Of a stretch of 64,000 nucleotides of DNA, positions 1 through 52,530 are shown piece by piece (the first letter of the stretch is position 1; each line of letters opens with the position of its first letter). The notes beneath the pieces were generated by a model that did no database searches, was not told where the DNA came from, and worked only from the letters and a program-made list of their open reading frames with translations. A program made the translations under genes and the position numbers. The DNA lies in assembly GCA_030272155.1 (NCBI GenBank), contig CP126194.1, forward strand, positions 5,447,501-5,511,500, given 5' to 3'. Source of the DNA: Tetradesmus obliquus. Its lineage: Eukaryota; Chlorophyta; Chlorophyceae; Sphaeropleales; Scenedesmaceae.

Positions 1-2584
1 GCTACGGGCGAATGTTCGGTCCGGCGTGCCGGCTGGCCCAATATAGGAAGCTGCTTGGTGTGCATCGTGAAAGTTGATTTCTGTTATAACTCTTTGTAAA
101 ATGTTAATATATGAATTTTAAAGCCATACGAATGTCCAGTGTGCAGGATGCAGGTTGGCAAGGGTTGCGGTGCATCGCCACTGGAAACTTTTTTTTCCAC
201 TTGAAAACTCACTCGACCGCTGAAATTCCTACTGGTCGCTTTTCTCCCGTACGTTCCACCAACCAGCATGTGAGGTTTTCACCTGCCTAGGACAGACATG
301 CGTAGCCAAGGGGAGCGGCCCTCAAAGCGCCGCTACGGGCGAATGTTCGGTCCGGCGTGCCGGCTGGCCCAAAATAGGAAGCTGCTTGGTGTGCATCGTG
401 AAAGTTGATTTTTGTTATAACTCTTTGTAAAATGTTAATATATGAATTTTAAAGGCATACGAATGTGCAGGGTGCAGGATGCAGGTTGGCAAGGGTTGCG
501 GTGCATCGCCACTGTAAACTTTTTTTTTCCACTGGAAACTCACTGGACCGCTAAAATTCCTACTGGTCGCTTTTCTCCCGTACGTTCCACCAACCAGCAT
601 GTGAGGTTTTCACCTGCCTAGGACAGACATGCGTAGCCAAGCGGAGCGGCCCTCAAAGCGCCGCTACGGGCGAATGTTCGGTCCGGCGTGCCGGCTGGCC
701 CAATATAGGAAGCTGCTTGGTGTGCATCGTGAAAGTTGATTTTTGTTATAACTCTTTGTAAAATGTTAATACATGAATTTTAAAGCCATACGAATGTCCA
801 GGGTGCAGGATGCAGGTTGGCAAGGGTTGCGGTGCATCGCCACTGGAAACTCACTGGACCGCTAAAATTCCTACTGGTCGCTTTTCTCCCGTACGTTCCA
901 CCAACCAGCATGTGAGGTTTTCACCTGCCTAGGACAGACATGCGTAGCCAAGCGGAGCGGCCCTCAAAGCGCCGCTACGGGCGAATGTTCGGTCCGGCGT
1001 GCCGGCTGGCCCAATATAGAAAGCTGCTTGGTGTGCATCTTGAAAGTTGATTTTTGTTATAACTCTTTGTAAAATGTTAATACATGAATTTTAAAGCCAT
1101 ACGAATGTCCAGGGTGCAGGATGCAGGTTGGCAAGGGTTGCGGTGCATCGCCACTGGAAACTCACTGGACCGCTAAAATTCCTACTGGTCGCTTTTCTCC
1201 CGTACGTTCCACCAACCAGCATGTGAGGTTTTCACCTGCCTAGGACAGACATGCGTAGCCAAGGGGAGCGGCCCTCAAAGCGCCGCTACGGGCGAATGTT
1301 CGGTCCGGCGTGCCGGCTGGCCCAATATAGGAAGCTGCTTGGTGTGCATCGTGAAAGTTGATTTTTGTTATAACTCTTTGTAAAATGTTAATATATGAAT
1401 TTTAAAGCCATACGAATGTCCAGTGTGCAGGATGCAGGTTGGCAAGGGTTGCGGTGCATCGCCACTGGAAACTTTTTTTTCCACTTGAAAACTCACTCGA
1501 CCGCTGAAATTCCTACTGGTCGCTTTTCTCCCGTACGTTCCACCAACCAGCATGTGAGGTTTTCACCTGCCTAGGACAGACATGCGTAGCCAAGGGGAGC
1601 GGCCCTCAAAGCGCCGCTACGGGCGAATGTTCGGTCCGGCGTGCCGGCTGGCCCAAAATAGGAAGCTGCTTGGTGTGCATCGTGAAAGTTGATTTTTGTT
1701 ATAACTCTTTGTAAAATGTTAATATATGAATTTTAAAGGCATACGAATGTGCAGGGTGCAGGATGCAGGTTGGCAAGGGTTGCGGTGCATCGCCACTGTA
1801 AACTTTTTTTTTCCACTGGAAACTCACTGGACCGCTAAATTTCCTACTGGTCGCTTTTCTCCCGTACGTTCCACCAACCAGCATGTGAGGTTTTCACCTG
1901 CCTAGGACAGACATGCGTAGCCAAGCGGAGCGGCCCTCAAAGCGCCGCTACGGGCGAATGTTCGGTCCGGCGTGCCGGCTGGCCCAATATAGGAAGCTGC
2001 TTGGTGTGCATCGTGAAAGTTGATTTTTGTTATAACTCTTTGTAAAATGTTAATACATGAATTTTAAAGCCATACGAATGTCCAGGGTGCAGGATGCAGG
2101 TTGGCAAGGGTTGCGGTGCATCGCCACTGGAAACTCACTGGACCGCTAAAATTCCTACTGGTCGCTTTTCTCCCGTACGTTCCACCAACCAGCATGTGAG
2201 GTTTTCACCTGCCTAGGACAGACATGCGTAGCCAAGGGGAGCGGCCCTCAAAGCGCCGCTACGGGCGAATGTTCGGTCCGGCGTGCCGGCTGGCCCAATA
2301 TAGGAAGCTGCTTGGTGTGCATCGTGAAAGTTGATTTTTGTTATAACTCTTTGTAAAATGTTAATATATGAATTTTAAAGCCATACGAATGTCCAGTGTG
2401 CAGGATGCAGGTTGGCAAGGGTTGCGGTGCATCGCCACTGGAAACTTTTTTTTCCACTTGAAAACTCACTCGACCGCTGAAATTCCTATTGATCGCTTTT
2501 CTCCCGTACGTTCCACCAACCAGCATGTGAGGTTTTCACCTGCCTAGGACAGACATGCGTAGCCAAGGGGAGCGGCCCTCAAAG
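1..2584 (+). repeat. Satellite array, block 1 (311/331-bp monomers)
   Basis: About eight head-to-tail monomers. Each contains the landmarks gtgaggttttcacctgcc, a GC-rich segment with the dyad CCGGC-gt-GCCGG, an AT-rich segment (ctctttgtaaaatgttaat) and ggttggcaagggttgcgg. Three monomer forms occur. S is 311 bp (ccactggaaactcactgg). L1-form is 331 bp with an oligo-T and then ccacttgaaaact. L2-form is 331 bp with ccactgtaaact, T8 and ccactggaaact. The order L1-L2-S-S gives a 1,284-bp higher-order unit: for example, the same L1 monomer is at 84 and 1368 and the same L2 monomer at 415 and 1699. The minus strand of every monomer has a short open frame of 61 or 97 codons, which is most simply a by-product of the repeat. 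Confidence 0.95.
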
Positions 2585-2700
2585 GAGTGATTGCGGAACA
2601 GCTTGCCTCACTCTCTTAATGGATCTTTTTATGGAGCAAGTGCACAGTTATTTAGGTCAGCCCTTGTAACGTTCTTGCTCACAAAAAAAAAAAAAAAAAA
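2585..2700 (+). mobile_element. LINE 3' fragment A
   Basis: The last ~100 bp of the LINE 3' UTR (from ggagtga to ttcttgct), followed by a pure poly(A) at 2683-2700. It interrupts a satellite monomer and is flanked by a 13-bp direct repeat, gcggccctcaaag, at 2572-2584 and 2701-2713. This is a complete target-site duplication, so it is an authentic retrotransposition event truncated about 6 nt 3' of the conserved 3'-UTR hairpin. It is non-coding. Confidence 0.93.
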
Positions 2701-2871
2701 GCGGCCCTCAAAGCGCCGCTACGGGCGAATGTTCGGTCCGGCGTGCCGGCTGGCCCAAAATAGGAAGCTGCTTGGTGTGCATCGTGAAAGTTGATTTTTG
2801 TTATAACTCTTTGTAAAATGTTAATATATGAATTTTAAAGCCATACGAATGTGCAGGGTGCAGGATGCAGG
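2701..2871 (+). repeat. Satellite, partial monomer between LINE fragments A and B
   Basis: Continuation of the monomer split by fragment A, up to gtgcaggatgcagg, where fragment B is inserted. No other content is seen. Confidence 0.9.
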
Positions 2872-3131
2872 TTTTTTTTTTTTTTTTTTTTTTTGAAGCA
2901 AGAACGTTACAAGGGCTGACCTAAATAACTGTGCACTTGCTCCATAAAAAGATCCATTGAGAGAGTGAGGCAACCTGTTCCGCACTCACTCCACAGGTCT
3001 CTTGTACCAAGAGACGCTGTCACACGATCATGCAGACAGCCCCTTGCGGAGCAGCCCCGAAAGGCATCCAGGACCTGACCGAGTGCCCAGACTCCACTAA
3101 AATCACAGTCGCGCAATGACGTCCTGTGATG
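2872..3131 (-). mobile_element. LINE 3' fragment B (minus strand)
   Basis: Poly(T) at 2872-2894 followed by the reverse complement of the last ~237 bp of the LINE 3' UTR, ending at cctgtgatg. The satellite resumes with gatgcaggttgg, so a TSD of about 8 bp (gatgcagg, partly shared with the LINE end) is present. The same junctions recur at 31495-31750 and 32756-33017, so those three are probably descendants of one insertion spread by satellite duplication. Confidence 0.9.
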
Positions 3132-4026
3132 CAGGTTGGCAAGGGTTGCGGTGCATCGCCACTGTAAACTTTTTTTTTCCACTGGAAACTCACTGGACCG
3201 CTAAAATTCCCACTGGTCGCTTTTCTCCCGTACGTTCCACCAACCAGCATGTGAGGTTTTCACCTGCCTAGGACAGACATGCGTAGCCAAGCGGAGCGGC
3301 CCTCAAAGCGCCGCTACGGGCGAATGTTCGGTCCGGCGTGCCGGCTGGCCCAATATAGGAAGCTGCTTGGTGTGCATCGTGAAAGTTGATTTTTGTTATA
3401 ACTCTTTGTAAAATGTTAATACATGAATTTTAAAGCCATACGAATGTCCAGGGTGCAGGATGCAGGTTGGCAAGGGTTGCGGTGCATCGCCACTGGAAAC
3501 TCACTGGACCGCTAAAATTCCTACTGGTCGCTTTTCTCCCGTACGTTCCACCAACCAGCATGTGAGGTTTTCACCTGCCTAGGACAGACATGCGTAGCCA
3601 AGCGGAGCGGCCCTCAAAGCGCCGCTACGGGCGAATGTTCGGTCCGGCGTGCCGGCTGGCCCAATATAGGAAGCTGCTTGGTGTGCATCGTGAAAGTTGA
3701 TTTTTGTTATAACTCTTTGTAAAATGTTAATACATGAATTTAAAAGCCATACGAATGTCCAGGGTGCAGGATGCAGGTTGGCAAGGGTTGCGGTGCATCG
3801 CCACTGGAAACTCACTGGACCGCTAAAATTCCTACTGGTCGCTTTTCTCCCGTACGTTCCACCAACCAGCATGTGAGGTTTTCACCTGCCTAGGACAGAC
3901 ATGCGTAGCCAAGCGGAGCGGCCCTCAAAGCGCCGCTACGGGCGAATGTTCGGTCCGGCGTGCCGGCTGGCCCAATATAGAAAGCTGCTTGGTGTGCATC
4001 TTGAAAGTTGATTTTTGTTATAACTC

Positions 4027-4032
<6 letters not shown>
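3132..4032 (+). repeat. Satellite array, mainly L2 and S monomers
   Basis: Rest of the L2 monomer interrupted by fragment B, then S-type monomers, stopping at aactctttgta where fragment C is inserted. No gene is seen. Confidence 0.93.
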
Positions 4033-4057
<25 letters not shown>

Positions 4058-4527
4058 GAAGCAAGAACGTTACAAGGGCTGACCTAAATAACTGTGCACT
4101 TGCTCCATAAAAAGATCCATTGAGAGAGTGAGGCAACCTGTTCCGCACTCACTCCACAGGTCTCTTGTACCAAGAGACGCTGTCACACGATCATGCAGAC
4201 AGCCCCTTGCGGAGCAGCCCCGAAAGGCATCCAGGACCTGACCGAGTGCCCAGACTCCACTAAAATCACAGTCGCGCAATGACGTCCTGTGATGTGTGAC
4301 AGACCGTGACTGGCCCTTGAATCAAAATCCGTCCATGGCGTAACTGTCAGCTATCACTGCATGGTGACTTGTACACCTCTACAAGCTGCACTTTACAGGC
4401 AGCATTACGACACCTACACAAGACGCCTATTAATAGGTGACGGATTGTCGACACAGACAATCCCCACCTGACTATTCATTGACTCTCCACTTCATGCAAA
4501 GCACATCCTGCTACTGACCGAACATAC
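4033..4527 (-). mobile_element. LINE 3' fragment C (minus strand)
   Basis: Poly(T) at 4033-4057, then the reverse complement of ~470 bp of LINE 3' UTR, ending in gaccgaacatac. It is flanked by the 11-bp TSD aactctttgta at 4022-4032 and 4528-4538. It carries the 3'-UTR variant also seen in the element at 4579-10452 (gaatcaaaatccgtcc rather than gaaacaaaatctgtcc). It is non-coding. Confidence 0.93.
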
Positions 4528-4578
4528 AACTCTTTGTAAAATGTTAATACATGAATTTTGAAGCCATACGAATGTCCA
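4528..4578 (+). repeat. 51-bp satellite remnant between two LINE insertions
   Basis: Piece of one S-type monomer, from aactctttgtaaaatg to tacgaatgtcca. The same original monomer therefore took two independent LINE insertions of opposite orientation, C and D. A frame entering the downstream LINE ORF from 4558 begins with TTG in this remnant and has no ATG, so it is a chance read-through and not a gene start. Confidence 0.9.
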
Positions 4579-4985
4579 CAGGACACAGAACCTGTGATTG
4601 AGTTTACAGACGGGCAGGGCAGGTTACTCAGGGTAGCCTGGACAACGCCGTGGGGCCAGCGGGTGGCAGCGGTGGCGGTGTATGCGCCGCACGAACCCAC
4701 GGGGCGCCCAGCCTGGTTTCAGGGGCCTTATCAGGAGGCACTGGAGGCAGGCGCGCAGGGGTCCAGCCTGATTGTGGGCGGGGACTTCAACTGTGCCTTG
4801 CAGGAAATCGACGTGCAGCCAGTGGCTGGCACGCGGGCGCGACACTCGCGCCGCATGGTGGGGGCAGCGCAGCTGCAGCGCGTCACTGTGCGCTCGGGCC
4901 TGGTGGATGCGTGGCGACACTGCAACCCGCACGCCAGGCAGCCTACGCATTACAGCTACCATGGCAGCGCAGCTGGCAGCAGCAA

Positions 4986-5100
4986 CGCGGCAGCCGCAAC
5001 AACATCAGCAGCAGCAGCAGCAGCAGCAGCCACAACAGCAATAACAGACGCTACAACCACAGCTCATGCTGCAGCCGCGGCGGCTGCAGCAGCAGCAGGC
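4986..5100 (+). repeat. Trinucleotide-repeat region inside the endonuclease domain
   Basis: GCA/ACA-type codon runs encoding an alanine-rich loop between the GDFN and SDH endonuclease motifs. The matching stretch in the full-length copy (about 54180-54312) is several codons longer and more homogeneous, so this is a length-variable microsatellite within coding sequence. Confidence 0.75.
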
Positions 5101-7949
5101 AGCAGGCGAGATCAGGGGCAGCCAGCAGCAGCAAATCAAGCCACGTCAGCCGGCAGGATTGACTATGTCTTCTTGTCAGCAGACCTGGTTGAGGAGGGCT
5201 GGCTGCAGAAGGCCACACAGCACATGAGGCAGCCTTCAGATCACCGCCCTGTGGTTGTCAAGCTGCGGCCGCCTGGCATGCCGCTCCTTGGACAGCGCAG
5301 GTGGTGCTTCCCCGCCTCTGCTCTGGGTGGCGCAGCTTTTGTCTCAGCTATGCAGGAGAGCCTGTCAGCAGCGGTGGAGCAGCAGCAGCAGCAGCGGCCG
5401 CGCAACAACCCAGCAGCTGAGTTTGAGCACCTTAAGCAGCATGCTGTGACTGCCACTGCAGTCATAATGCAGCGACAGAGGCTGCAGCAGCAGGCAGAAC
5501 TTAGGCGGCTGCGCAGGGCGGTGGCAACAGCCGGCTGGCAGCAGCGCCAGCACAGCAATGGGCAGACGCAAACCAACCTTCAGCATGCAGAACAGCAGTT
5601 GCTGGACTATGAAGTGCAGCAACGCCAGCAGCAGCAGGAGAAGACTGATGCGATGTACGAGCTGTACGCTGATGGCCCGTCTAGCTTTTGGGGAGCGAGG
5701 CTAGGGCAGGCCGTGCCGGAGCCGCAGTATATCAGCGCTGTGGCTGCAGCAGATGGCACCACAGTGTCCACTGGCAGCAGCGAGGGCGCGGCAGCAGCAG
5801 GCAGCCTGCTTGCAGACTTTTATGACCCTGCAGAAGACGGGCTGTTCTCGCGACGCCCCACCGACCCACAGCAGCAGCAGGAGCTGCTTGCGTGTGTGGA
5901 TAAGCAGCTTTCTTCGGAGCAGCAACAGCAATGCCTGGGCCCCGCAGGCGACGGCACCATCACCTTGGAGGAGGCGACAGCGGCACTCAACAGCATGCCT
6001 AGAGGGAAGGTGCCAGGCAGCGATGGGCTCACGTATGAGTTCTATAGCGCATTCTGGGAGCAGCTAGGACCAGCTTTTGTGGCAGCATGCAACTTCCGGT
6101 TTGGTCTGGAGGGGGCGCTGCTGTCTCCGCAGCAGCGCCTTGGGCTCATCACCTTACTGTTCAAGGGTGGCGGTAAGCCAAGGGACCAGGCTGCCAGCTA
6201 CCGCCCCATCACGCTGATGAACTGTGATGTGAAAATTCTGGCGAAGGTGGTGGTGCTGCGGGCGGCGCCAGTGCTGGACAGCGTCGTGGACAGCACTCAG
6301 ACAGCGTTTGTTCCAGGCAGGGACATTGCAGACAATGTGCTGCTGCACCTGGAGGAAGTTGACTTCCTCAGGACGCAGCAGCAGCCCGGCTGCATTTTGT
6401 TTCTGGATTTTGAGAAGGCCTATGACAGGCTAGACAGGGAATGGCTGATGAAGTGCATGGCAGCAATGCAGTTCCCGCCAGGCATGCGTAGGTGGGTACA
6501 GCTGCTGCTGGCAGGCACACAGGGCCGCATCGTGTTCAACGGCGGCCACCTCAGCAGGGTGTTTGACATCCCCTCTGGCTGCGCGCAGGGCAGCCCACTC
6601 AGCCCGCTGCTGTATGTGCTAGCAGCGCAGCCGCTGGCGGCCAAATGCAGAGCGCTGCAAGCAGCAGGGGAAGTGGACAGCATCAGCATGCCCGATGGCT
6701 CAGCAGCACCCTGCAGCATGCAGCATGCAGACGACACCACCCTGCACGCCGCCAGCAGGCAAGGCGTTGCTGTGCTGGTGAGGAAAGCAGTACAGCCGTT
6801 TTGTGCAGCGAGTGGCGCCAAGCTGGGAGTCAGCAAGTGCCAGGGCATGGAAGTGGGCACGCAGCAGCCGTTTGTAGGGGTAGATCCAGCCACGCAGATA
6901 CCGTTCCATGATACAGCACTACACCCGATCAGGCACCTAGGTCTGCTGCTGTCAGCAGCAGGCGCAGAGCCGCATGCAGCAGCGCTGTACACGCAGCGCC
7001 TGCAAACCATCACATACCGGGCGCGGCAGTGGGCACGGCAGAATCTCAGCTATTTGGGGCGCTGCGCAGTTGCGCAGCAGATGATGGCATCTTGCATCAC
7101 CTATCATGCGCAGTTCGTGCCAGTCCCAGTAGATATCATGGCCAGGATGCACCGCCGCCTCTTAGGGTTTGTGACAGAGCAGGGCTGCGCTCGAGAAGCC
7201 AACATCCGGCAGTGGAATGAAAGCCCTCCGGCAGCAGTGGCCAGCCTGCCTTTCAGCATGGGCGGAATGAGGCAGGTTGATGTCAGGGCGCACGCCACAG
7301 CAATGCAGGCACGTACAGCAGCAGCATTGCTGTCGCCGCGGCGAGCCCCATGGAAGGCCTTCATGCGGGCCAACCTGCGCCACGCACTGCCAGGACTAGG
7401 GGAGGCAGCGTTGGTGCAGCGATCAAAGGCGCCGCTGCAGGCTGCCGCCAGGGGCGGCAGGCTGCCGCTGCGCCTATCAGCATACATAGAGGCGCTGCAA
7501 AGCGTGGGCATTCACAGGCACGTCGAGCACAGCGCCATGACCAGCCAGCAGATCCAGCTTGAGCTGCTGGTGGGGAACCACAGCGTGGGCAGCAGCTCAG
7601 ATGGGCAGATGTTGGCAGCAGCCGGTGCCCTCCCTGCTCAGCTGCGCCACGGCGCAGGCACCACACTGGGGCAGGTGCAGCAGCAGCTAACTGGACAGCC
7701 GCAGCAAGATGGCATTGTGCTGCCGCCGGCATGGCTGCACACTCTGCGGGAGGGCAGCACAGGTGCATGGCAAACCGACACGCAGCAACAGTGGGCACAA
7801 CAGTTGCAGCACGATGGCACCACCAAGTGCTACAAGGTGCAGCAGGATGGCAGCTTGAAGGCCACAACAGCTGTCCTAATGGACACAGCAGCCCTCCAAT
7901 GGGCGCCATGTTGTGTGGTAGATGTAACAGCAGTGCCGCACCCTGCATT

Positions 7950-8165
7950 TCAGCGGCAACAACAGCAGCGGCAGCAGCGGCAGCAGCAGCAGCAACAGCG
8001 GCAGCAGCCAACAGCTGGGCAACAGCGGCAGCCACGACAGCAGCAACAACAGGAACGTCAGCAGCAGCTGCTGCAGCAGCCAGCTGCATGGCAACAGCAG
8101 CAGCCGCGACAGCAGCAACAACAGGAACGGCAGCAGCAGCAGCAGCAGCAGCAGCACCACCAGGG

Positions 8166-8219
<54 letters not shown>

Positions 8220-8262
8220 CCAAGGACAGCACCAGCAACAGCAGCAGCAGCAGCAATCGCGA
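7950..8262 (+). repeat. CAG-rich region encoding poly-Q linker
   Basis: Dense CAG/CAA/CGG repeats encode a low-complexity Q/R segment between the reverse transcriptase and the zinc-binding end of ORF2. Shadow frames here give poly-A, poly-S, poly-L and poly-C open frames on both strands that should not be read as genes. The homologous stretch in the full-length copy is about 57166-57478. Confidence 0.9.
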
Positions 8263-9786
8263 AGCACGCCGTCATGGTACCTGGTGGGGGCTTGGGCAGA
8301 CATTCGCGTAGATCCTAGTGTATGGGGGATGGGGTTTGCTGTCAGCCTGCTGCAGTTCACGCCAAAGGTGGCAACATGCAGGCTGCTGCAGGAGCAATGC
8401 AGTCGGCAGTGCAAAGAGGGATGGCTATCAGGTGTCGGCATGCGCCCGCGCCTGTGGCGCAACCGCCTGGGTGCTGAGGCGCCACAGGACGGCTTGCAGG
8501 AGATGGAGGCAGCTCAGAAACGGTCCTTCCAGCAAATGCAGCAAAATAGCGAGGCGCCTGGCAATCGTAGCAGCAGCAGCAGTGGCAGCCAGCGGTTTAG
8601 CGACGCAGCTATGATGGCGGCTTACCATGCGTCCTGGATGGATCCGTCCAGGGAGCGGGAGCTGCCAAGACAGCGCGCGGCAACAGCAGCAGCAGTAGTC
8701 ACGGCTCAACGGCAGCAACAGGAGCAGCAACAGCAGCGCATCAGCTGCCCAGCACACAATGATCTACTGGACCCGATCACTCACTCCATGGGTGCTGCCA
8801 ATGCCATGCAGCACCGCTGGGTGGCGAGTTATCAGCGGCTAAAAGACACCCAGCTGCCGAGGCGGCTGCGAGTGTTTGGCTGGCGGCTTCTGCATGCAGG
8901 AGTGAAGGTAGGCGCACGGCGCATGCTGGCATCCAGCAGACACGCGCCGGCTCACTTTACCTGCCCAGCACAGCAGTGCCAGCAGCCGCAGCAACTGGAG
9001 ACCCTCACCCACTTGTTAGTGGAGTGCCCTGTAGCTGCAGCAGCGTGGCAGTGGTACGCGCAACAGGTGTGGCAGCGTGTGCAGCCCGGAGCAGTGGTCC
9101 CTGTTAATAACAGCCGTCTGCTGCTGCTGGATGACTTCAGTGTGTCGGCCCCGCCAGCAGGGCAGCAGCAGATGTGGACGCAGCTGCGTCTGCTGCTGCT
9201 GGAGTCCATTTGGGTGGTGCGCTGCAGCAGCATCAGGGCTGGCGTGATTGTGGCCAGTACAGATGGCAGCGATGGCAGCGGCAGCCGCAATGCAGGCAGC
9301 AATTCTCAATCTCAGAGCCACGGCATCAGCGATGCAGAGGACAGCAGCAGCAGCAGCATGGGCAGTCAACGGGGTACAACTGGCGAGCCGGGCAGCTCAT
9401 CATACGCTGCTAAGGCTGTGGCGTGTAGGTTTCTGGCAGAGCTGCGGCAGCAAATTCAGAGGGAGTGGGATAGGGTGGAAGTAGATGTTAGGATAGGTTG
9501 TGGGATACCGTTTGCATGGCTGCAGGGAAGGTCGCCTGAGATCAAACTTGTTGACTTTGAGCAGAAGTGGGGAGCACTGTATAGGATGGGCGCAAATGGG
9601 CGCATCAAGGTTCGGGCCAGCGCGGCTGGCATGTGAGGGATGGATTGGGCACGGGTCTACGAGGCGTGGTGGTCTGTTTTGACGGTTCGGGCGGGGTGTA
9701 CAATGCATTCGTTGGAGTAGTGGCCGTCGTTCCTCGTTGTGATGTGTTGCAAAATAGTATGGCACAGGCTAAGTTGATGGCCGGGA

Positions 9787-9852
9787 TACGTTATGTATGC
9801 ATGTGAGTGGGTAGCAGAGTACGTTATGTATGCGTGCGTGTGGGTAGCAGTG
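9787..9852 (+). repeat. 33-bp direct repeat x2 in the LINE 3' UTR
   Basis: Two adjacent 33-bp units, each starting tacgttatgtatgc and ending in gtgggtagcag plus two bases (9787-9819 and 9820-9852). A degenerate third start (tacgagg) follows. The structure is conserved in other copies of the 3' UTR in the window. Confidence 0.8.
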
Positions 9853-10018
9853 TACGAGGATGTGTGCAGCATGTGTGGATTAGTTTGTGTGTGTGTGGCT
9901 TTGTGTGCCTGAGGTGGTGTCATTTCCTGCAGAATGCCACATATCTCATAGGTGTATGTTCGGTCAGTAGCAGGATGTGCTTTGCATGAAGTGGAGAGTC
10001 AATGAATAGTCAGGTGGG

Positions 10019-10055
10019 GATTGTCTGTGTCGACAATCCGTCACCTATTAATAGG
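10019..10055 (+). other. 3'-UTR hairpin and palindrome of the LINE
   Basis: Gattgtc and gacaatc (10019-10025 and 10032-10038) form a perfect 7-bp stem with a 6-nt loop. The perfect 12-bp palindrome cctattaatagg follows at 10044-10055. Both are retained in most copies. Some LINE reverse transcriptases recognise 3'-UTR structures, but whether these do so is inference. Confidence 0.65.
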
Positions 10056-10302
10056 CGTCTTGTGTAGGTGTCGTAATGCTGCCTGTAAAGTGCAGCTTGT
10101 AGAGGTGTACAAGTCACCATGCAGTGATAGCTGACAGTTACGCCATGGACGGATTTTGATTCAAGGGCCAGTCACGGTCTGTCACACATCACAGGACGTC
10201 ATTGCGCGACTGTGATTTTAGTGGAGTCTGGGCACTCGGTCAGGTCCTGGATGCCTTTCGGGGCTGCTCCGCAAGGGGCTGTCTGCATGATCGTGTGACA
10301 GC

Positions 10303-10321
10303 GTCTCTTGGTACAAGAGAC
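10303..10321 (+). other. Conserved 8-bp hairpin near the LINE 3' end
   Basis: Gtctcttg-gta-caagagac is a perfect 8-bp stem with a 3-nt loop about 100 nt before the poly(A). It is conserved in all copies long enough to contain it. Several short copies in the window are truncated within or just 3' of this hairpin, as expected if it stalls reverse transcription. Confidence 0.7.
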
Positions 10322-10423
10322 CTGTGGAGTGAGTGCGGAACAGGTTGCCTCACTCTCTCAATGGATCTTTTTATGGAGCAAGTGCACAGTTATTTAGGTC
10401 AGCCCTTGTAACGTTCTTGCTTC

Positions 10424-10452
<29 letters not shown>

Positions 10453-10455
<3 letters not shown>

Positions 10456-11780
10456 GAATGTCCAGGGTGCAGGATGCAGGTTGGCAAGGGTTGCTGTGCA
10501 TCGCCACTGAAAACTCACTGGACCGCTAAAATTCCTACTGGTCGCTTTTCTCCCGTACGTTCCACCAACCAGCATGTAAGGTTTTCACCTGCCTAGGACA
10601 GACATGCGTAGCCAAGCGGAGCGGCCCTCATAGCGCCGCTACGGGCGAATGTTCGGTCCGGCGTGCCGGCTGGCCCAATATAGGAAGCTGCTTGGTGTGC
10701 ATCGTGAAAGTTGATTTTTGTTATAACTCTTTGTAAAATGTTAATATATGAATTTTAAAGCCATACGAATGTGCAGGGTGCAGGATGCAGGTTGGCAAGG
10801 GTTGCGGTGCATCGCCACTGGAAACTTTTTTTTCCACTTGAAAACTCACTGGACCGCTAAAATTCCTACTGGTCGCTTTTCTCCCGTACGTTCCACCAAC
10901 CAGCATGTGAGGTTTTCACCTGCCTAGGACAGACATGCGTAGCCAAGGGGAGCGGCCCTCAAAGCGCCGCTACGGGCGAATGTTCGGTCCGGCGTGCCGG
11001 CTGGCCCAATATAGGAAGCTGCTTGGTGTGCATCGTGAAAGTTGATTTTTGTTATAACTCTTTGTAAAATGTTAATATATGAATTTTAAAGCCATACGAA
11101 TGTCCAGTGTGCAGGATGCAGGTTGGCAAGGGTTGCGGTGCATCGCCACTGGAAACTTTTTTTTCCACTTGAAAACTCACTCGACCGCTGAAATTCCTAC
11201 TGGTCGCTTTTCTCCCGTACGTTCCACCAACCAGCATGTGAGGTTTTCACCTGCCTAGGACAGACATGCGTAGCCAAGGGGAGCGGCCCTCAAAGCGCCG
11301 CTACGGGCGAATGTTCGGTCCGGCGTGCCGGCTGGCCCAAAATAGGAAGCTGCTTGGTGTGCATCGTGAAAGTTGATTTTTGTTATAACTCTTTGTAAAA
11401 TGTTAATATATGAATTTTAAAGCCATACGAATGTGCAGGGTGCAGGATGCAGGTTGGCAAGGGTTGCGGTGCATCGCCACTGTAAACTTTTTTTTTCCAC
11501 TGGAAACTCACTGGACCGCTAAAATTCCTACTGGTCGCTTTTCTCCCGTACGTTCCACCAACCAGCATGTGAGGTTTTCACCTGCCTAGGACAGACATGC
11601 GTAGCCAAGCGGAGCGGCCCTCAAAGCGCCGCTACGGGCGAATGTTCGGTCCGGCGTGCCGGCTGGCCCAATATAGGAAGCTGCTTGGTGTGCATCGTGA
11701 AAGTTGATTTTTGTTATAACTCTTTGTAAAATGTTAATACATGAATTTTAAAGCCATACGAATGTCCAGGGTGCAGGATG
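10453..11780 (+). repeat. Satellite array between LINE copies D and E
   Basis: About four monomers: the rest of the S monomer split by D, then L1/L2-like forms at roughly 331-bp spacing. The first complete long monomer (10721-10906 region) is a hybrid, with L1-type oligo-T and L2-type flanks, which suggests gene conversion between monomer types. Confidence 0.93.
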
Positions 11781-12544: not shown

Positions 12545-12930
12545 GAAATTCCTACTGGTCGCTTTTCTCCCGTACGTTCCACCAACCAGCATGTGAGGTT
12601 TTCACCTGCCTAGGACAGACATGCATAGCCAAGGGGAGCGGCCCTCAAAGCGCCGCTACGGGCGAATGTTCGGTCCGGCGTGCCGGCTGGCCCAATATAG
12701 GAAGCTGCTTGGTGTGCATCGTGAATGTTGATTTTTGTTATAACTCTTTGTAAAATGTTAATATATGAATTTTAAAGCCATAGGAATGTCCAGTGTGCAG
12801 GATGCAGTTTTATTTTTATTTTTTTGATGCAGGTTGGCAAGGGTTGCGGTGCATCGCCACTGGAAACTTTTTTTCCACTTGAAAACTCACTGGACCGCTA
12901 AAATTCCTACTGGTCCCTTTTCTCCCGTAC

Positions 12931-21895: not shown

Positions 21896-23183
21896 ATGGA
21901 GATGTGGACGCAGCTGCGTCTGCTGCTGCTGGAGTCCATTTGGGTGGTGCGCTGCAGCAGCATCAGGGCTGGCGTGATTGTGGCCAGTGCAGATGGCAGC
22001 GATGGCAGCGGCAGCCGCAATGCAGGCAGCAATTCTCAATCTCAGAGCCACGGCATCAGCGATGCAGAGGACAGCAGCAGCAACAGCAGCAGCATGGGCA
22101 GTCAACGGGGTACAACTGGCGAGCCGGGCAGCTCATCATACGCTGCTAAGGCTGTGGCGTGTAGGTTTCTGGCAGAGCTGCGGCAGCAAATTCAGAGGGA
22201 GTGGGATAGGGTGGAAGTAGATGTTAGGATAGGTTGTGGGATACCGTTTGCATGGCTGCAGGGAAGGTCGCCTGAGATCAAACTTGTTGACTTTGAGCAG
22301 AAGTGGGGAGCACTGTATAGGATGGGCGCAAATGGGCGCATCAAGGTTCGGGCCAGCGCGGCTGGCATGTGAGGGATGGATTGGGCACGGGTCTACGAGG
22401 CGTGGTGGTCTGTTTTGACGGTTCGGGCGGGGTGTACAATGCATTCGTTGGAGTAGTGGCCGTCGTTCCTCGTTGTGATGTGTTGCAAAATAGTATGGCA
22501 AAGGCTAAGTTGATGGCCGGGATACGTTATGTATGCATGTGAGTGGGTAGCAGAGTACGTTATGTATGCGTGCGTGTGGGTAGCAGTGTACGAGGATGTG
22601 TGCAGCATGTGTGGATTAGTTTGTGTGTGTGTGTGGCTTTGTGTGCCTGAGGTGGTGTCATTTCCTACAGAATGCCACATATCTCATAGGTGTATGTTCG
22701 GTCAGTAGCAGGATGTGCTTTGCATGAAGTGGAGAGTCAATGAATAGTCAGGTGGGGATTGTCTGTGTCGACAATCCGTCACCTATTAAAAGGCGTCTTG
22801 TGTAGGTGTCGTAATGCTGCCTGTAAAGTGCAGCTTGTAGAGGTGTACAAGTCACCATGCAGTGATAGCTGACAGTTACGCCATGGACAGATTTTGTTTC
22901 AAGGGCCAGTCACGGTATGTCACACATCACAGGACGTCATTGCGCGACTGTGATTTTAGTGGAGTCTGGGCACTCGGTCAGGTCCTGGATGCCTTTCGGG
23001 GCTGCTCCGCAAGGGGCTGTCTGCATGATCGTGTGACAGCGTCTCTTGGTACAAGAGACCTGTGGAGTGAGTGCGGAACAGGTTGCCTCACTCTCTCAAT
23101 GGATCTTTTTATGGAGCAAGTGCACAGTTATTTAGGTCAGCCCTTGTAACGTTCTTGCTTCAAAAAAAAAAAAAAAAAAAAAA
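21896..23183 (+). mobile_element. LINE 3' copy L (1.3 kb)
   Basis: A 4-nt filler, then LINE sequence from agatgtggacgcag (21900) through the ORF2 end, full 3' UTR and poly(A) at 23162-23183. The 12-bp TSD tatagaaagctg is at 21884-21895 and 23184-23195. It belongs to the SSSNSSS subfamily with the #2-type 3' UTR. Confidence 0.94.
21900..22372 (+). pseudogene. LINE ORF2 C-terminal remnant in copy L
   Basis: The frame is open from the truncation point to the normal ORF2 stop (22370-22372), ~157 codons beginning around MWTQLRLLLLES. It lies C-terminal to the CCHC motif, so no catalytic or zinc-binding residues remain. An upstream satellite frame is fused to it by chance. Confidence 0.88.
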
Positions 23184-26100
23184 TATAGAAAGCTGCTTGG
23201 TGTGCATCGTGAAAGTTGATTTTTGTTATAACTCTTTGTTAAAATGTTAATACAGGAATTTTAAAGCCATACGAATGTCCAGGGTGCAGGATGCAGGTTG
23301 GCAAGGGTTGCGGTGCATCGCCACTGGAAACTCACTGGACCGCTAAAATTCCTACTGGTCGCTTTTCTCCCGTACGTTCCACCAACCAGCATGTGAGGTT
23401 TTCACCTGCCTAGGACAGACATGCGTAGCCAAGCGGAGCGGCCCTCAAAGCGCCGCTACGGGCGAATGTTCGGTCCGGCGTGCCGGCTGGCCCAATATAG
23501 AAAGCTGCTTGGTGTGCATCTTGAAAGTTGATTTTTGTTATAACTCTTTGTAAAATGTTAATACATGAATTTTAAAGCCATACGAATGTCCAGGGTGCAG
23601 GATGCAGGTTGGCAAGGGTTGCGGTGCATCGCCACTGGAAACTCACTGGACCGCTAAAGTTCCTACTGGTCGCTTTTCTCCCGTACGTTCCACCAACCAG
23701 CATGTGAGGTTTTCACCTGCCTAGGACAGACATGCGTAGCCAAGCGGAGCGGCCCTCAAAGCGCCGCTACGGGCGAATGTTCGGTCCGGCGTGCCGGCTG
23801 GCCCAATATAGGAAGCTGCTTGGTGTGCATCGTGAAAGTTGATTTTTGTTATAACTCTTTGTAAAATGTTAATATATGAATTTTAAAGCCATACGAATGT
23901 CCAGTGTGCAGGATGCAGGTTGGCAAGGGTTGCGGTGCATCGCCACTGGAAACTTTTTTTTCCACTTGAAAACTCACTCGACCGCTGAAATTCCTACTGG
24001 TCGCTTTTCTCCCGTACGTTCCACCAACCAGCATGTGAGGTTTTCACCTGCCTAGGACAGACATGCGTAGCCAAGGGGAGCGGCCCTCAAAGCGCCGCTA
24101 CGGGCGAATGTTCGGTCCGGCGTGCCGGCTGGCCCAATATAGGAAGCTGCTTGGTGTGCATCGTGAAAGTTGATTTCTGTTATAACTCTTTGTAAAATGT
24201 TAATATATGAATTTTAAAGCCATACGAATGTCCAGTGTGCAGGATGCAGGTTGGCAAGGGTTGCGGTGCATCGCCACTGTAAACTTTTTTTTCCACTTGA
24301 AAACTCACTCGACCGCTGAAATTCCTACTGGTCGCTTTTCTCCCGTACGTTCCACCAACCAGCATGTGAGGTTTTCACCTGCCTAGGACAGACATGCGTA
24401 GCCAAGGGGAGCGGCCCTCAAAGCGCCGCTACGGGCGAATGTTCGGTCCGGCGTGCCGGCTGGCCCAATATAGAAAGCTGCTTGGTGTGCATCGTGAAAG
24501 TTGATTTTTGTTATAACTCTTTGTAAAATGTTAATATATGAATTCTAAAGCCATACGAATGTGCAGGGTGCAGGATGCAGGTTGGCAAGGGTTGCGGTGC
24601 ATCGCCACTGTAAACTTTTTTTTTCCACTGGAAACTCACTGGACCGCTAAAATTCCTACTGGTCGCTTTTCTCCCGTACGTTCCACCAACCAGCATGTGA
24701 GGTTTTCACCTGCCTAGGACAGACATGCGTAGCCAAGGGGAGCGGCCCTCAAAGCGCCGCTACGGGCGAATGTTCGGTCCGGCGTGCCGGCTGGCCCAAT
24801 ATAGGAAGCTGCTTGGTGTGCATCGTGAAAGTTGATTTTTGTTATAACTCTTTGTAAAATGTTAATATATGAATTTTAAAGCCATACGAATGTGCAGGGT
24901 GCAGGATGCAGGTTGGCAAGGGTTGCGGTGCATCGCCACTGTAAACTTTTTTTTTCCACTGGAAACTCACTGGACCGCTAAAATTCCTACTGGTCGCTTT
25001 TCTCCCGTACGTTCCACCAACCAGCATGTGAGGTTTTCACCTGCCTAGGACAGACATGCGTAGCCAAGCGGAGCGGCCCTCAAAGCGCCGCTACGGGCGA
25101 ATGTTCGGTCCGGCGTGCCGGCTGGCCCAATATAGAAAGCTGCTTGGTGTGCATCTTGAAAGTTGATTTTTGTTATAACTCTTTGTAAAATGTTAATACA
25201 TGAATTTTAAAGCCATACGAATGTCCAGGGTGCAGGATGCAGGTTGGCAAGGGTTGCGGTGCATCGCCACTGGAAACTCACTGGACCGCTAAAGTTCCTA
25301 CTGGTCGCTTTTCTCCCGTACGTTCCACCAACCAGCATGTGAGGTTTTCACCTGCCTAGGACAGACATGCGTAGCCAAGCGGAGCGGCCCTCAAAGCGCC
25401 GCTACGGGCGAATGTTCGGTCCGGCGTGCCGGCTGGCCCAATATAGGAAGCTGCTTGGTGTGCATCGTGAAAGTTGATTTTTGTTATAACTCTTTGTAAA
25501 ATGTTAATATATGAATTTTAAAGCCATACGAATGTCCAGTGTGCAGGATGCAGTTTTATTTTTATTTGTTTGATGCAGGTTGGCAAGGGTTGCGGTGCAT
25601 CGCCACTGGAAACTTTTTTTTCCACTTGAAAACTCACTGGACCGCTGAAATTCCTACTGGTCCCTTTTCTCCCGTACGTTCCACCAACCAGCATGCGAGG
25701 TTTTCACCTGCCTAGGACAGACATGCGTAGCCAAGGGGAGCGGCCCTCAAAGCGCCGCTACGGGCGAATGTTCGGTCCGGCGTGCCGGCTGGCCCAATAT
25801 AGGAAGCTGCTTGGTGTGCATCGTGAAAGTTGATTTTTGTTATAACTCTTTGTAAAATGTTAATATATGAATTTTAAAGCCATACGAATGTGCAGGGTGC
25901 AGGATGCAGGTTGGCAAGGGTTGCGGTGCATCGCCACTGTAAACTTTTTTTTTCCACTGGAAACTCACTGGACCGCTAAAATTCCTACTGGTCGCTTTTC
26001 TCCCGTACGTTCCACCAACCAGCATGTGAGGTTTTCACCTGCCTAGGACAGACATGCGTAGCCAAGCGGAGCGGCCCTCAAAGCGCCGCTACGGGCGAAT

Positions 26101-29100
26101 GTTCGGTCCGGCGTGCCGGCTGGCCCAATATAGAAAGCTGCTTGGTGTGCATCTTGAAAGTTGATTTTTGTTATAACTCTTTGTAAAATGTTAATACATG
26201 AATTTTAAAGCCATACGAATGTCCAGGGTGCAGGATGCAGGTTGGCAAGGGTTGCGGTGCATCGCCACTGGAAACTCACTGGACCGCTAAAGTTCCTACT
26301 GGTCGCTTTTCTCCCGTACGTTCCACCAACCAGCATGTGAGGTTTTCACCTGCCTAGGACAGACATGCGTAGCCAAGCGGAGCGGCCCTCAAAGCGCCGC
26401 TACGGGCGAATGTTCGGTCCGGCGTGCCGGCTGGCCCAATATAGGAAGCTGCTTGGTGTGCATCGTGAAAGTTGATTTTTGTTATAACTCTTTGTAAAAT
26501 GTTAATATATGAATTTTAAAGCCATACGAATGTCCAGTGTGCAGGATGCAGGTTGGCAAGGGTTGCGGTGCATCGCCACTGGAAACTTTTTTTTCCACTT
26601 GAAAACTCACTCGACCGCTGAAATTCCTACTGGTCGCTTTTCTCCCGTACGTTCCACCAACCAGCATGTGAGGTTTTCACCTGCCTAGGACAGACATGCG
26701 TAGCCAAGGGGAGCGGCCCTCAAAGCGCCGCTACGGGCGAATGTTCGGTCCGGCGTGCCGGCTGGCCCAATATAGGAAGCTGCTTGGTGTGCATCGTGAA
26801 AGTTGATTTCTGTTATAACTCTTTGTAAAATGATAATATATGAATTTTAAAGCCATACGAATGTCCAGTGTGCAGGATGCAGGTTGGCAAGGGTTGCGGT
26901 GCATCGCCACTGGAAACTTTTTTTTCCACTTGAAAACTCACTCGACCGCTGAAATTCCTACTGGTCGCTTTTCTCCCGTACGTTCCACCAACCAGCATGT
27001 GAGGTTTTCACCTGCCTAGGACAGACATGCGTAGCCAAGGGGAGCGGCCCTCAAAGCGCCGCTACGGGCGAATGTTCGGTCCGGCGTGCCGGCTGGCCCA
27101 ATATAGAAAGCTGCTTGGTGTGCATCGTGAAAGTTGATTTTTGTTATAACTCTTTGTAAAATGTTAATATATGAATTTTAAAGCCATACGAATGTGCAGG
27201 GTGCAGGATGCAGGTTGGCAAGGGTTGCGGTGCATCGCCACTGTAAACTTTTTTTTTCCACTGGAAACTCACTGGACCGCTAAAATTCCTACTGGTCGCT
27301 TTTCTCCCGTACGTTCCACCAACCAGCATGTGAGGTTTTCACCTGCCTAGGACAGACATGCGTAGCCAAGCGGAGCGGCCCTCAAAGCGCCGCTACGGGC
27401 GAATGTTCGGTCCGGCGTGCCGGCTGGCCCAATATAGGAAGCTGCTTGGTGTGCATCGTGAAAGTTGATTTTTGTTAGAACTCTTTGTAAAATGTTAATA
27501 CATGATTTTTAAAGCCATACGAATGTCCAGGGTGCAGGATGCAGGTTGGCAAGGGTTGCGGTGCATCGCCACTGGAAACTCACTGGACCGCTAAAATTCC
27601 TACTGGTCGCTTTTCTCCCGTACGTTCCACCAACCAGCATGTGAGGTTTTCACCTGCCTAGGACAGACATGCGTAGCCAAGCGGAGCGGCCCTCAAAGCG
27701 CCGCTACGGGCGAATGTTCGGTCCGGCGTGCCGGCTGGCCCAATATAGAAAGCTGCTTGGTGTGCATCGTGAAAGTTGATTTTTGTTATAACTCTTTGTA
27801 AAATGTTAATACATGAATTTAAAAGCCATACGAATGTCCAGGGTGCAGGATGCAGGTTGGCAAGGGTTGCGGTGCATCGCCACTGGAAACTTTTTTTTCC
27901 ACTTGAAAACTCACTCGACCGCTGAAATTCCTACTGGTCGCTTTTCTCCCGTACGTTCCACCAACCAGCATGTGAGGTTTTCACCTGCCTAGGACAGACA
28001 TGCGTAGCCAAGGGGAGCGGCCCTCAAAGCGCCGCTACGGGCGAATGTTCGGTCCGGCGTGCCGGCTGGCCCAAAATAGGAAGCTGCTTGGTGTGCATCG
28101 TGAAAGTTGATTTTTGTTATAACTCTTTGTAAAATGTTAATATATGAATTTTAAAGCCATACGAATGTCCAGTGTGCAGGATGCAGGTTGGCAAGGGTTG
28201 CGGTGCATCGCCACTGGAAACTTTTTTTTCCACTTGAAAACTCACTCGACCGCTGAAATTCCTACTGGTCGCTTTTCTCCCGTACGTTCCACCAACCAGC
28301 ATGTGAGGTTTTCACCTGCCTAGGACAGACATGCGTAGCCAAGGGGAGCGGCCCTCAAAGCGCCGCTACGGGCGAATGTTCGGTCCGGCGTGCCGGCTGG
28401 CCCAATATAGGAAGCTGCTTGGTGTGCATCGTGAAAGTTGATTTCTGTTATAACTCTTTGTAAAATGATAATATATGAATTTTAAAGCCATACGAATGTC
28501 CAGTGTGCAGGATGCAGGTTGGCAAGGGTTGCGGTGCATCGCCACTGGAAACTTTTTTTTCCACTTGAAAACTCACTCGACCGCTGAAATTCCTACTGGT
28601 CGCTTTTCTCCCGTACGTTCCACCAACCAGCATGTGAGGTTTTCACCTGCCTAGGACAGACATGCGTAGCCAAGGGGAGCGGCCCTCAAAGCGCCGCTAC
28701 GGGCGAATGTTCGGTCCGGCGTGCCGGCTGGCCCAAAATAGGAAGCTGCTTGGTGTGCATCGTGAAAGTTGATTTTTGTTATAACTCTTTGTAAAATGTT
28801 AATATATGAATTTTAAAGCCATACGAATGTGCAGGGTGCAGGATGCAGGTTGGCAAGGGTTGCGGTGCATCGCCACTGTAAACTTTTTTTTTCCACTGGA
28901 AACTCACTCGACCGCTAAAATTCCTACTGGTCGCTTTTCTCCCGTACGTTCCACCAACCAGCATGTGAGGTTTTCACCTGCCTAGGACAGACATGCGTAG
29001 CCAAGCGGAGCGGCCCTCAAAGCGCCGCTACGGGCGAATGTTCGGTCCGGCGTGCCGGCTGGCCCAATATAGAAAGCTGCTTGGTGTGCATCTTGAAAGT

Positions 29101-30794
29101 TGATTTTTGTTATAACTCTTTGTAAAATGTTAATACATGAATTTTAAAGCCATACGAATGTCCAGGGTGCAGGATGCAGGTTGGCAAGGGTTGCGGTGCA
29201 TCGCCACTGGAAACTCACTGGACCGCTAAAGTTCCTACTGGTCGCTTTTCTCCCGTACGTTCCACCAACCAGCATGTGAGGTTTTCACCTGCCTAGGACA
29301 GACATGCGTAGCCAAGCGGAGCGGCCCTCAAAGCGCCGCTACGGGCGAATGTTCGGTCCGGCGTGCCGGCTGGCCCAATATAGGAAGCTGCTTGGTGTGC
29401 ATCGTGAAAGTTGATTTTTGTTATAACTCTTTGTAAAATGTTAATATATGAATTTAAAAGCCATACGAATGTCCAGGGTGCAGGATGCAGGTTGGCAAGG
29501 GTTGCGGTGCATCGCCACTGGAAACTTTTTTTTCCACTTGAAAACTCACTCGACCGCTGAAATTCCTATTGGTCGCTTTTCTCCCGTACGTTCCACCAAC
29601 CAGCATGTGAGGTTTTCACCTGCCTAGGACAGACATGCGTAGCCAAGGGGAGCGGCCCTCAAAGCGCCGCTACGGGCGAATGTTCGGTCCGGCGTGCCGG
29701 CTGGCCCAATATAGGAAGCTGCTTGGTGTGCATCGTGAAAGTTGATTTTTGTTATAACTCTTTGTAAAATGTTAATATATGAATTTTAAAGCCATACGAA
29801 TGTCCAGTGTGCAGGATGCAGGTTGGCAAGGGTTGCGGTGCATCGCCACTGGAAACTTTTTTTTCCACTTGAAAACTCACTCGACCGCTGAAATTCCTAC
29901 TGGTCGCTTTTCTCCCGTACGTTCCACCAACCAGCATGTGAGGTTTTCACCTGCCTAGGACAGACATGCGTAGCCAAGGGGAGCGGCCCTCAAAGCGCCG
30001 CTACGGGCGAATGTTCGGTCCGGCGTGCCGGCTGGCCCAAAATAGGAAGCTGCTTGGTGTGCATCGTGAAAGTTGATTTTTGTTATAACTCTTTGTAAAA
30101 TGTTAATATATGAATTTTAAAGCCATACGAATGTGCAGGGTGCAGGATGCAGGTTGGCAAGGGTTGCGGTGCATCGCCACTGTAAACTTTTTTTTTCCAC
30201 TGGAAACTCACTGGACCGCTAAAATTCCTACTGGTCGCTTTTCTCCCGTACGTTCCACCAACCAGCATGTGAGGTTTTCACCTGCCTAGGACAGACATGC
30301 GTAGCCAAGCGGAGCGGCCCTCAAAGCGCCGCTACGGGCGAATGTTCGGTCCGGCGTGCCGGCTGGCCCAATATAGGAAGCTGCTTGGTGTGCATCGTGA
30401 AAGTTGATTTTTGTTATAACTCTTTATAAAATGTTAATACATAAATAAATAGCCATACGAATGTCCAGGGTGCAGGATGCAGGTTGGCAAGGGTTGCGGT
30501 GCATCGCCACTGGAAACTCACTGGACCGCTAAAATTCCTACTGGTCGCTTTTCTCCCGTACGTTCCACCAACCAGCATGTGAGGTTTTCACCTGCCTAGG
30601 ACAGACATGCGTAGCCATGGGGAGCGGCCCTCAAAGCGCCGCTACGGGCGAATGTTCGGTCCGGCGTGCCGGCTGGCCCAATATAGGAAGCTGCTTGGTG
30701 TGCATCGTGAAAGTTGATTTTTGTTATAACTCTTTGTAAAATGTTAATATATGAATTTTAAAGCCATACGAATGTCCAGTGTGCAGGATGCAGG
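23184..30794 (+). repeat. Satellite array with 1,635-bp higher-order period
   Basis: About 23-24 monomers without any LINE copy. Equivalent monomers recur at 26482, 28117 and 29752 (period 1,635 = four 331-bp plus one 311-bp monomer). The rare marker aaagttcc recurs at about 23657, 25292 and 29229. A monomer near 25553 has a T-rich allele with ttgtttgatgcag, identical to 62021. A divergent monomer near 30425-30450 (acataaataaatagcc) marks the right edge. No other genes are seen. Confidence 0.93.
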
Positions 30795-30899
30795 TTTTTT
30801 TTTTTTTTTTTTTTTGAAGCAAGAACGTTACAAGGGCTGACCTAAATAACTGTGCACTTGCTCCATAAAAAGATCCATTGAGAGAGTGAGGCAACCTGT
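30795..30899 (-). mobile_element. LINE 3' fragment M, 3' part of a chimeric insertion
   Basis: Poly(T) at 30795-30815, then ~84 bp of the LINE 3' end (minus strand) ending at caacctgt. It then changes directly into the fold-back sequence. The whole composite (30795-31142) is flanked by one 11-bp TSD, caggatgcagg, at 30784-30794 and 31143-31153. LINE and fold-back therefore entered together. Confidence 0.9.
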
Positions 30900-31142
30900 A
30901 GTAATCAAGCAACCCAAGCATAGCTGGTAGTAATCAAGCAACCCAAGCATAGCTTGGACCAGCGACCCAACAGACTGCTCTCACTGGGATTCGATCCCTG
31001 ATCCTTAAGCATGCTAGGTGTCCAATTTGGTCTACTTGGTATGCGCGCAGGCTTCTATGCTCAAGGATCAGGGATCGAATCCCAGTGAGAACAATCTGTT
31101 GGGTCGCTGGTCCAAGCTATGCTTGGGTTGCTTGAATACCAC
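30900..31142 (-). repeat. Fold-back element with 87-bp arms joined to LINE fragment M
   Basis: Arms at 30926-31012 and 31057-31143 are inverted copies of ~87 bp with about five mismatches, around a 44-bp centre. A 29-bp direct repeat (agtaatcaagcaaccc...) starts the left side (30900 and 30929). The sequence is unlike the satellite and unlike any part of the LINE. It is found only here and in the tandem copy at 32171-32413. I do not recognise it as a named element. Confidence 0.85.
31022..31092 (+). other. tRNA-like segment (A box and B box) inside the fold-back
   Basis: Tggtctacttggt (31028-31040) resembles a Pol III A box and ggatcgaatcc (31072-31082) a B box, 32 nt apart, within tRNA range. 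A cttctat loop between them would give anticodon TCT, and cagggatcgaatcccag looks like a T arm with one mismatch. The acceptor arms do not pair, so it is not a functional tRNA. A tRNA-derived SINE or tRNA pseudogene is the best guess. Confidence 0.45.

Positions 31143-31494: not shown

Positions 31495-31513
<19 letters not shown>

Positions 31514-52363: not shown

Positions 52364-52394
<31 letters not shown>

Positions 52395-52499: not shown

Positions 52500-52530
<31 letters not shown>

What the first reader, a model, noticed from the sequence alone, without database searches (positions are those of the whole stretch)
84..600. The 331-bp monomer looks like a 311-bp monomer plus a tail-only retrotransposition event
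The 20-bp difference between S (311) and L2 (331) monomers is a 12-bp duplication of ccactggaaact plus T8. This is what a LINE insertion consisting only of its tail on the minus strand would leave: short TSD plus oligo-T. L1-form monomers carry a diverged version (ccactggaaact-T7-ccacttgaaaact). A failed insertion may therefore have created a new satellite variant that then amplified over tens of kilobases.
Basis: partly seen in the sequence, partly recalled or inferred. Interest (0 to 1): 0.75.

Follow-up and report, generated by a model that had tools for sequence, protein, structure and literature searches.

The report
LINE-tail scar became a satellite variant
A 20-base insert that looks like the bare tail of a failed jumping-gene insertion entered one unit of a likely centromeric repeat on a single chromosome and was then copied to about 90 units, and other chromosomes of this genome show related events.

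Summary
Two monomer classes exist: 311 bp (S) and 330-331 bp (L1, L2). They differ by an oligo-T tract plus a second copy of CCACTGGAAACT. The window holds 42 S, 43 L1, 27 L2 and 2 recombinant sites among 114 classed. A genome-wide pattern finds 88 inserted sites, every one on this chromosome, within 88 kb.

They have a 312-bp monomer, and this insert was found in none of 122 intervals. Diverged inverted copies beside the array are empty too, so 311 bp is the ancestral state. Present-day S monomers are a sister lineage of L, not its direct ancestor.

Surroundings favour retrotransposition. The same arrays hold LINE insertions with mostly 10-14 bp target duplications and bodies down to 9-10 bp. 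One body-less insertion (about T27-30 between 16-bp duplicates) lies on C2. Short LINE scars also multiplied inside the C1, C13 and C15 satellites.

Doubts: T7-T8 is shorter than nearly all LINE tails held, so the scar may be trimmed rather than tail-only at birth, and T8 cannot name its template. Each process is known. The combination looks new.

The parts
178..209 (+). L1-form scar: left repeat 178-189, T7 190-196, right repeat 197-209 (diverged, 13 bp)
   Evidence: read; class counts
509..540 (+). L2-form scar: left repeat 509-520 (one substitution), T8 521-528, right repeat 529-540
   Evidence: read; class counts
840..851 (+). empty target site CCACTGGAAACT in an S (311-bp) monomer
   Evidence: empty state also in C1, C13 and C15 arrays
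1..4032 (+). first block of the mixed 311/331 satellite array in the window
   Evidence: TRF row 1-4032; anchors
23182..50429 (+). main block of the mixed array in the window, interrupted by short LINE insertions
   Evidence: TRF rows 23182-49797 and 33667-50429; monomer order
4022..4538 (-). 5'-truncated LINE insertion in the satellite: T25 at 4033-4057, flanked by repeats AACTCTTTGTA (4022-4032 and 4528-4538)
4566..10464 (+). LINE insertion, apparently 5'-truncated, with A29 tail at 10424-10452, flanked by 13-bp repeats ATACGAATGTCCA
12801..12825 (+). second T-rich short insert (GATGCAG + TTTTATTTTTATTTTTTT), one of four 25-bp copies in C4; origin uncertain
53471..57766 (+). LINE ORF2 with endonuclease and reverse transcriptase domains: a likely kind of source for the machinery
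   Evidence: ORF; Pfam Exo_endo_phos and RVT_1
51366..53471 (+). ORF1-like reading frame before ORF2, 701 aa, no Pfam family

Best explanation
A LINE of the chromosomal cluster (L1-type: endonuclease plus reverse transcriptase) nicked one 311-bp satellite monomer on chromosome C4 at CCACTGGAAACT^CACTGG. It primed reverse transcription on the poly(A) tail of an RNA but copied only the tail. Repair of the staggered break duplicated the 12-bp target, leaving an oligo-T tract and a second copy (+20 bp). The tract stood at about T7-T8 before amplification. The scarred monomer diverged into L1 and L2, which spread by unequal exchange and conversion, often as L1-L2 neighbours, over 88 kb. Shown: the insert is derived, its structure, its confinement to C4, and precedents for tail-only and near-tail-only insertions. 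Inferred: the enzymes, the template, that the body was never copied, and how amplification happened.
For: 1. Polarity: consensus monomers of C1, C13 and C15 are 312 bp with an empty site. None of 122 intervals there shows this insert; at target starts in those arrays repeat-T-repeat was found 0 times (C13 46 of 46 empty; 28 of 54 raw starts on C1 and 53 of 111 on C15 read as empty, the rest thought to be largely reverse-strand hits of a near-palindromic start motif). Edge copies L057 and L058 keep 6 of 26 and 6 of 22 outgroup bases at diagnostic columns and are empty. 2. S is not a set of revertants of today's L. Column 202: S has derived C in 52 of 53; T in L1 46 of 48, L2 30 of 30, C1 25 of 25, C13 40 of 40; C15 split (19 T, 20 A, 1 gap). 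Column 71: L has G in 62 of 78, S has C in 49 of 53. 3. Single place: 88 of 88 pattern matches lie on C4, one strand, 5425701-5513483. 4. Repeat length 12 bp; 25 of 32 body-bearing insertion classes have exact repeats of 10-14 bp. 5. Body lengths run down to 28 (C2), 23 (C13), 14 (C1), 10 (C2), 9 (C15) and 0 (C2:4479019, T30 run, 16-bp repeats). 6. Perfect-repeat forms lie at the array edge. 7. Close copies of the LINE RT stretch lie in one place on each of 13 of 17 contigs.
Against: T7-T8 is short: of 169 T runs (4 or more) directly before the LINE end in the held DNA, 162 are 9 or longer and none is 7 or 8. No held C4 monomer was seen with LINE body at this site, so T8 cannot name the template. 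C15 shows a short LINE scar and a form reduced to T8 plus six bases at the same site, so loss of the body after insertion is possible. Of the 32 body-bearing classes, 4 had exact repeats of 0, 0, 1 or 6 bp and 3 were unresolved because the match ran into the next monomer. The tree needs 4 changes between inserted and empty states, although one clade for L (AU p 0.323) or for S (0.378) is not rejected. One C15 variant is a plain 24-bp duplication with no T tract, and one T7 run near the C4 array lies between 14-bp repeats with non-LINE sequence (C4:5514810), so repeats also arise without a LINE. The shift control gave 2-14 hits against 4-5 found, so it gives no statistical support; the hits printed were largely real insertions read at an offset.
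Confidence: 0.68

Rival explanations
1. A severely 5'-truncated LINE insertion with a short body landed at the same site, and a later small deletion removed the body and some of the T tail, leaving T8 next to the second repeat. Still a LINE scar, but not tail-only at birth.
For: On C15 a scar T11-12-GAAGCAAGAACGTTAC-filler between CGAAAGTCCTGGC repeats (7 copies) coexists with a shorter form T8-ATTGTT between nearly the same repeats (7 copies). Of 169 tails before a LINE end, none is T7 or T8.
Against: The pattern that found 88 copies leaves no room for body between tract and repeat, and no longer form was seen at this site in the held C4 DNA. A body-less insertion with a long tail exists on C2, so trimming is not needed.
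Confidence: 0.23
2. Non-LINE double-strand break repair: a 12-nt staggered break was filled in and T8 was added without a template or by polymerase slippage.
For: A plain 24-bp tandem duplication occurs on C15, and one T7 run between 14-bp repeats has non-LINE sequence beside it (C4:5514810).
Against: The C15 duplication has no T tract. LINE insertions with similar repeat lengths and oligo-T at the same end are common in the same arrays.
Confidence: 0.07
3. 331 bp is ancestral and S arose by exact deletion between the 12-bp repeats.
For: Deletion between direct repeats would restore the empty site exactly. The C4 tree needs 4 state changes and is poorly resolved.
Against: Needs separate losses on C1, C13, C15, in the edge copies and in S. 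S mostly keeps C at column 71, where L mostly has G, and has its own derived base at column 202.
Confidence: 0.02

Closest known systems
Zepp / ZeppL centromeric LINE clusters of green algae (PMC8226300 and PMC11005252, passages of each)
   Same: L1-type LINE with endonuclease and RT, localised cluster per chromosome, nested and strongly 5'-truncated copies.
   Different: Here the clusters on C1, C4, C13 and C15 also contain a 311-312 bp satellite. The passages read describe centromeres made of LINE or Copia elements, and the Chlorella paper reports no tandem satellite in its two genomes. The species here is unnamed and the LINE was not placed in a tree.
CUS-TR24 satellite interspersed with L1-CS LINEs in Cuscuta europaea (PMC8091179, passages)
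   Same: A LINE lineage that inserts preferentially into satellite monomers.
   Different: There the authors argue against amplification of a LINE-bearing compound monomer; here small LINE-like scars did amplify with the satellite.
Sunflower centromeres: centromere-specific LINE plus chromosome-specific tandem repeat (PMC4628103, passages)
   Same: LINE and satellite are both centromeric in one species.
   Different: No scar inside the satellite monomer is described in the passages read.
Satellites that arise from transposable elements (review PMC12628747, passages)
   Same: Element sequence becomes part of a tandem repeat.
   Different: There element sequence itself becomes the repeat; here an existing satellite gains a 20-bp tail-plus-target-duplication scar that marks a variant.

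Membership tests
TPRT (LINE-machinery) insertion | target site duplication of the length usual for the element | tested here: met
   12 bp; 25 of 32 body-bearing insertion classes have exact repeats of 10-14 bp, 3 unresolved, 4 shorter
TPRT (LINE-machinery) insertion | poly(A)/poly(T) tail abutting one duplicate | tested here: met
   T tract directly after the left repeat in the 88 matches; 6-8 T beyond the repeat; but shorter than 162 of 169 LINE tails held
TPRT (LINE-machinery) insertion | empty ancestral site | tested here: met
   C1, C13, C15 and C4 edge copies
TPRT (LINE-machinery) insertion | sequence from the 3' end of the element | tested here: not met
   no body in the copies found; short-bodied relatives and one body-less relative exist. 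So it works like such an insertion, but the template is not shown
TPRT (LINE-machinery) insertion | cut-site preference of the element | tested here: inconclusive
   by eye no clear motif; 15 of 19 listed nicks end in T as here, but a terminal T cannot be told from the tail
Zepp/ZeppL LINE (for the neighbouring element) | EN + RT, one localised cluster per chromosome | tested here: met
   Pfam domains; RT copies of 80% identity or more in one place on each of 13 of 17 contigs, single hits on three of these
Zepp/ZeppL LINE (for the neighbouring element) | falls in the Zepp clade in an RT tree | not tested
   no Zepp reference sequence was fetched
Centromeric satellite | binds CENH3 | not testable with these tools
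   needs ChIP

The most novel reading that the evidence does not exclude
Satellite evolution in these LINE-rich clusters runs on LINE scars. Each chromosome's array acquires private micro-insertions (tail-only or about 10-40 bp of LINE end), some of which spread through the array and mark its monomer classes, possibly because an oligo-T tract or a changed repeat length favours amplification or positioning. A single abortive insertion would then be enough to give a chromosome its own satellite.
Probability: 0.3. Interest if true: 0.75.

Novelty: new variant of a known kind. Interest (0 to 1): 0.58.

Why it matters
How new satellite variants start is rarely visible, because homogenisation erases the first step. 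Here the start can be read: an empty site on other chromosomes, the perfect scar at the array edge, and about 90 diverging copies. Because related scars sit in three other arrays of the same genome, the share of satellite variation that comes from failed LINE insertions can be counted. It also gives markers for following satellite spread within and between chromosomes.

Tried and rejected
Considered 331 bp as ancestral: rejected by three outgroup arrays and edge copies. Considered S as direct ancestor of L: rejected, S has its own derived base. Maximum-likelihood tree of 240 monomers: too shallow inside C4 to order events, bootstrap not settled; base-by-base polarity used instead. Shift control for the tail-only scan: 2-14 hits against 4-5 found, so it lends no support; the printed hits were largely real insertions seen at an offset. 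C-run and G-run controls gave 0, but how many such runs exist was not counted. Satellite derived from the LINE itself: blastn of the monomer against two LINE stretches of the window gave nothing at E 1. The C2:4467043 hit is ambiguous (target lies in the LINE's own 3' end) and not counted. C1:4443987 (A7, repeats of 8-11 bp depending on where the tail starts) could be a mutated derivative of the C1 14-bp scar; C4:5427806 (T6 with a 6-bp repeat) is too short to weigh. A fixed-length pattern with mismatches found one site only and was replaced by the gapped pattern. Literature on tail-only insertions and LINE scars in satellites: searches and 48 of open-licence PMC papers; others returned none. 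From the others I saw the listings and passages of five papers, and met no such case.

Full report
What is there. The window is C4:5447501-5511500 of an unnamed 104.66-Mb, 17-contig genome. It holds a 311/331-bp satellite broken up by LINE insertions. Reading the sequence, L monomers differ from S monomers by T7-T8 and a second copy of CCACTGGAAACT, at 178-209 (L1) and 509-540 (L2), against the single copy at 840-851 (S). In the window 42 S, 43 L1, 27 L2 and 2 recombinant sites were classed, 114 in all. In L2 they match at 11 of 12 bases, and in L1 the right copy has a substitution and an extra A.

Where it occurs. A pattern for the inserted state matches 88 places in the whole genome, all on C4, all on one strand, from 5425701 to 5513483. 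Three further copies have an altered tract.

Which state is ancestral. A DNA search found homologous arrays on C15 and C13 and C1. Their consensus monomers are 312 bp, 79-82% identical to C4, with an empty site. None of 122 intervals examined there (51 on C15, 44 on C13, 27 on C1) shows this insert. A direct count found no repeat-T-repeat there. Outside the C4 array, inverted diverged copies are empty at 3 of 3 sites. They keep 6 of 26 and 6 of 22 outgroup bases at diagnostic columns. Array monomers keep 1 of 1378 (S), 46 of 1248 (L1), 30 of 780 (L2) and 1 of 26 (L0), which is about what column 202 alone gives. So the edge copies split off before the array expanded. Inside C4, S has a derived base at column 202 (52 of 53), where L1 (46 of 48), L2 (30 of 30), C1 (25 of 25) and C13 (40 of 40) have T; C15 is mixed (19 T, 20 A). 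L mostly has G at column 71 (62 of 78), where S (49 of 53), C1 (25 of 25) and C15 (33 of 40) have C; C13 has A, and edge copy L057 has G. So the insertion is derived, and S and L are sister lineages. The tree of 240 rows does not resolve C4 well: it needs 4 state changes, and neither L nor S as one clade is rejected (p 0.323 and 0.378). Conversion between monomers probably explains the exceptions (inference).

What made it. LINE insertions in the same arrays have an oligo-T or oligo-A tail next to a target duplication. Of 32 insertion classes with a body (a few are one insertion at two lengths, and one is read on both strands), 25 have exact repeats of 10-14 bp, 3 are unresolved, and 4 have 0, 0, 1 or 6 bp. 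Bodies shrink almost to nothing: 28 bp (C2), 23 bp (C13), 14 bp (C1), 10 bp (C2), 9 bp (C15). On C2 at 4479019 a run of 30 T sits between 16-bp duplicates with no body; about 27 of the T belong to the tail. The T8 scar would be the end point of that series. The LINE in the window has endonuclease and RT domains. Copies of its RT stretch at 80% identity or more lie in one place on each of 13 of 17 contigs, as described for Zepp and ZeppL (PMC8226300, passages). That this is a green alga and that the clusters are centromeres are inferences from that likeness.

Doubts. The tract is short: of 169 tails before a LINE end in the held DNA, 162 have 9 T or more and none has 7 or 8. A trimmed short insertion is a real rival, since C15 has a short LINE scar and a form reduced to T8 plus six bases. 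The RNA copied cannot be known from T8. The arrays also make repeats without a LINE (24-bp duplication on C15; T7 run with non-LINE sequence between 14-bp repeats at C4:5514810). The scan for body-less structures has no good null.

The wider pattern. Short LINE scars have multiplied in other arrays: a 43-46 bp insert on C1 (11 copies, 10), inserts of 61-62 bp and 27 bp on C15 (7 copies each), one of about 49 bp on C13 (3 copies), and a T-rich 25-bp insert of uncertain origin on C4 (4 copies). In C4 the L2 form usually follows an L1 (24 of 28 adjoining pairs ending in L2). This suggests spread in blocks (inference).

Verdict. Tail-only at birth is the likeliest reading but not proven. Each process is known. 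The combination, a bare-tail scar caught near its origin and amplified as a satellite class with related cases on three other chromosomes, was not met in the searches made.

Noticed in passing
C1, locus L053 (C1:4440001-4450000): A 14-bp LINE-end scar with A16-19 tail and 14-bp repeats occurs in 11 monomers, in the same part of the monomer as the C4 scar but in the opposite orientation.
   Followed up: partly
C15, L049:1664-1730 and L049:2665-2705: A short LINE scar with filler and a shorter form (T8-ATTGTT), probably its trimmed derivative, are both multiplied, 7 copies each in the held C15 DNA.
   Followed up: partly
C2:4479019-4479070: Body-less T30 run with 16-bp repeats inside another LINE's 3' end; the same target followed by at least T15 occurs at 8 places genome-wide, the others not checked for body.
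   Followed up: partly
window 12801, 25547, 49791, 62014: Second T-rich insert (GATGCAG + 18 T-rich bases, slightly varying) making 356-357 bp monomers.
   Followed up: no
C4:5514810 (outside the window, locus L018): T7 run between 14-bp repeats with 21 bp of non-LINE sequence: a repeat-plus-T structure that may have no LINE origin.
   Followed up: no
monomer positions about 192 and 250-257 in C4: Several different LINE insertions end in two short stretches of the monomer, possible insertion hot spots.
   Followed up: no
window 30898-30954 and 32169-32225: Exact 29-bp doublet (GTAGTAATCAAGCAACCCAAGCATAGCTG) in two copies 1271 bp apart, within a segment duplicated together with its LINE insertions.
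   Followed up: no
window 51366-58853: LINE reading frames with many CAG repeats; the 701-aa ORF1-like frame matches no Pfam family.
   Followed up: no
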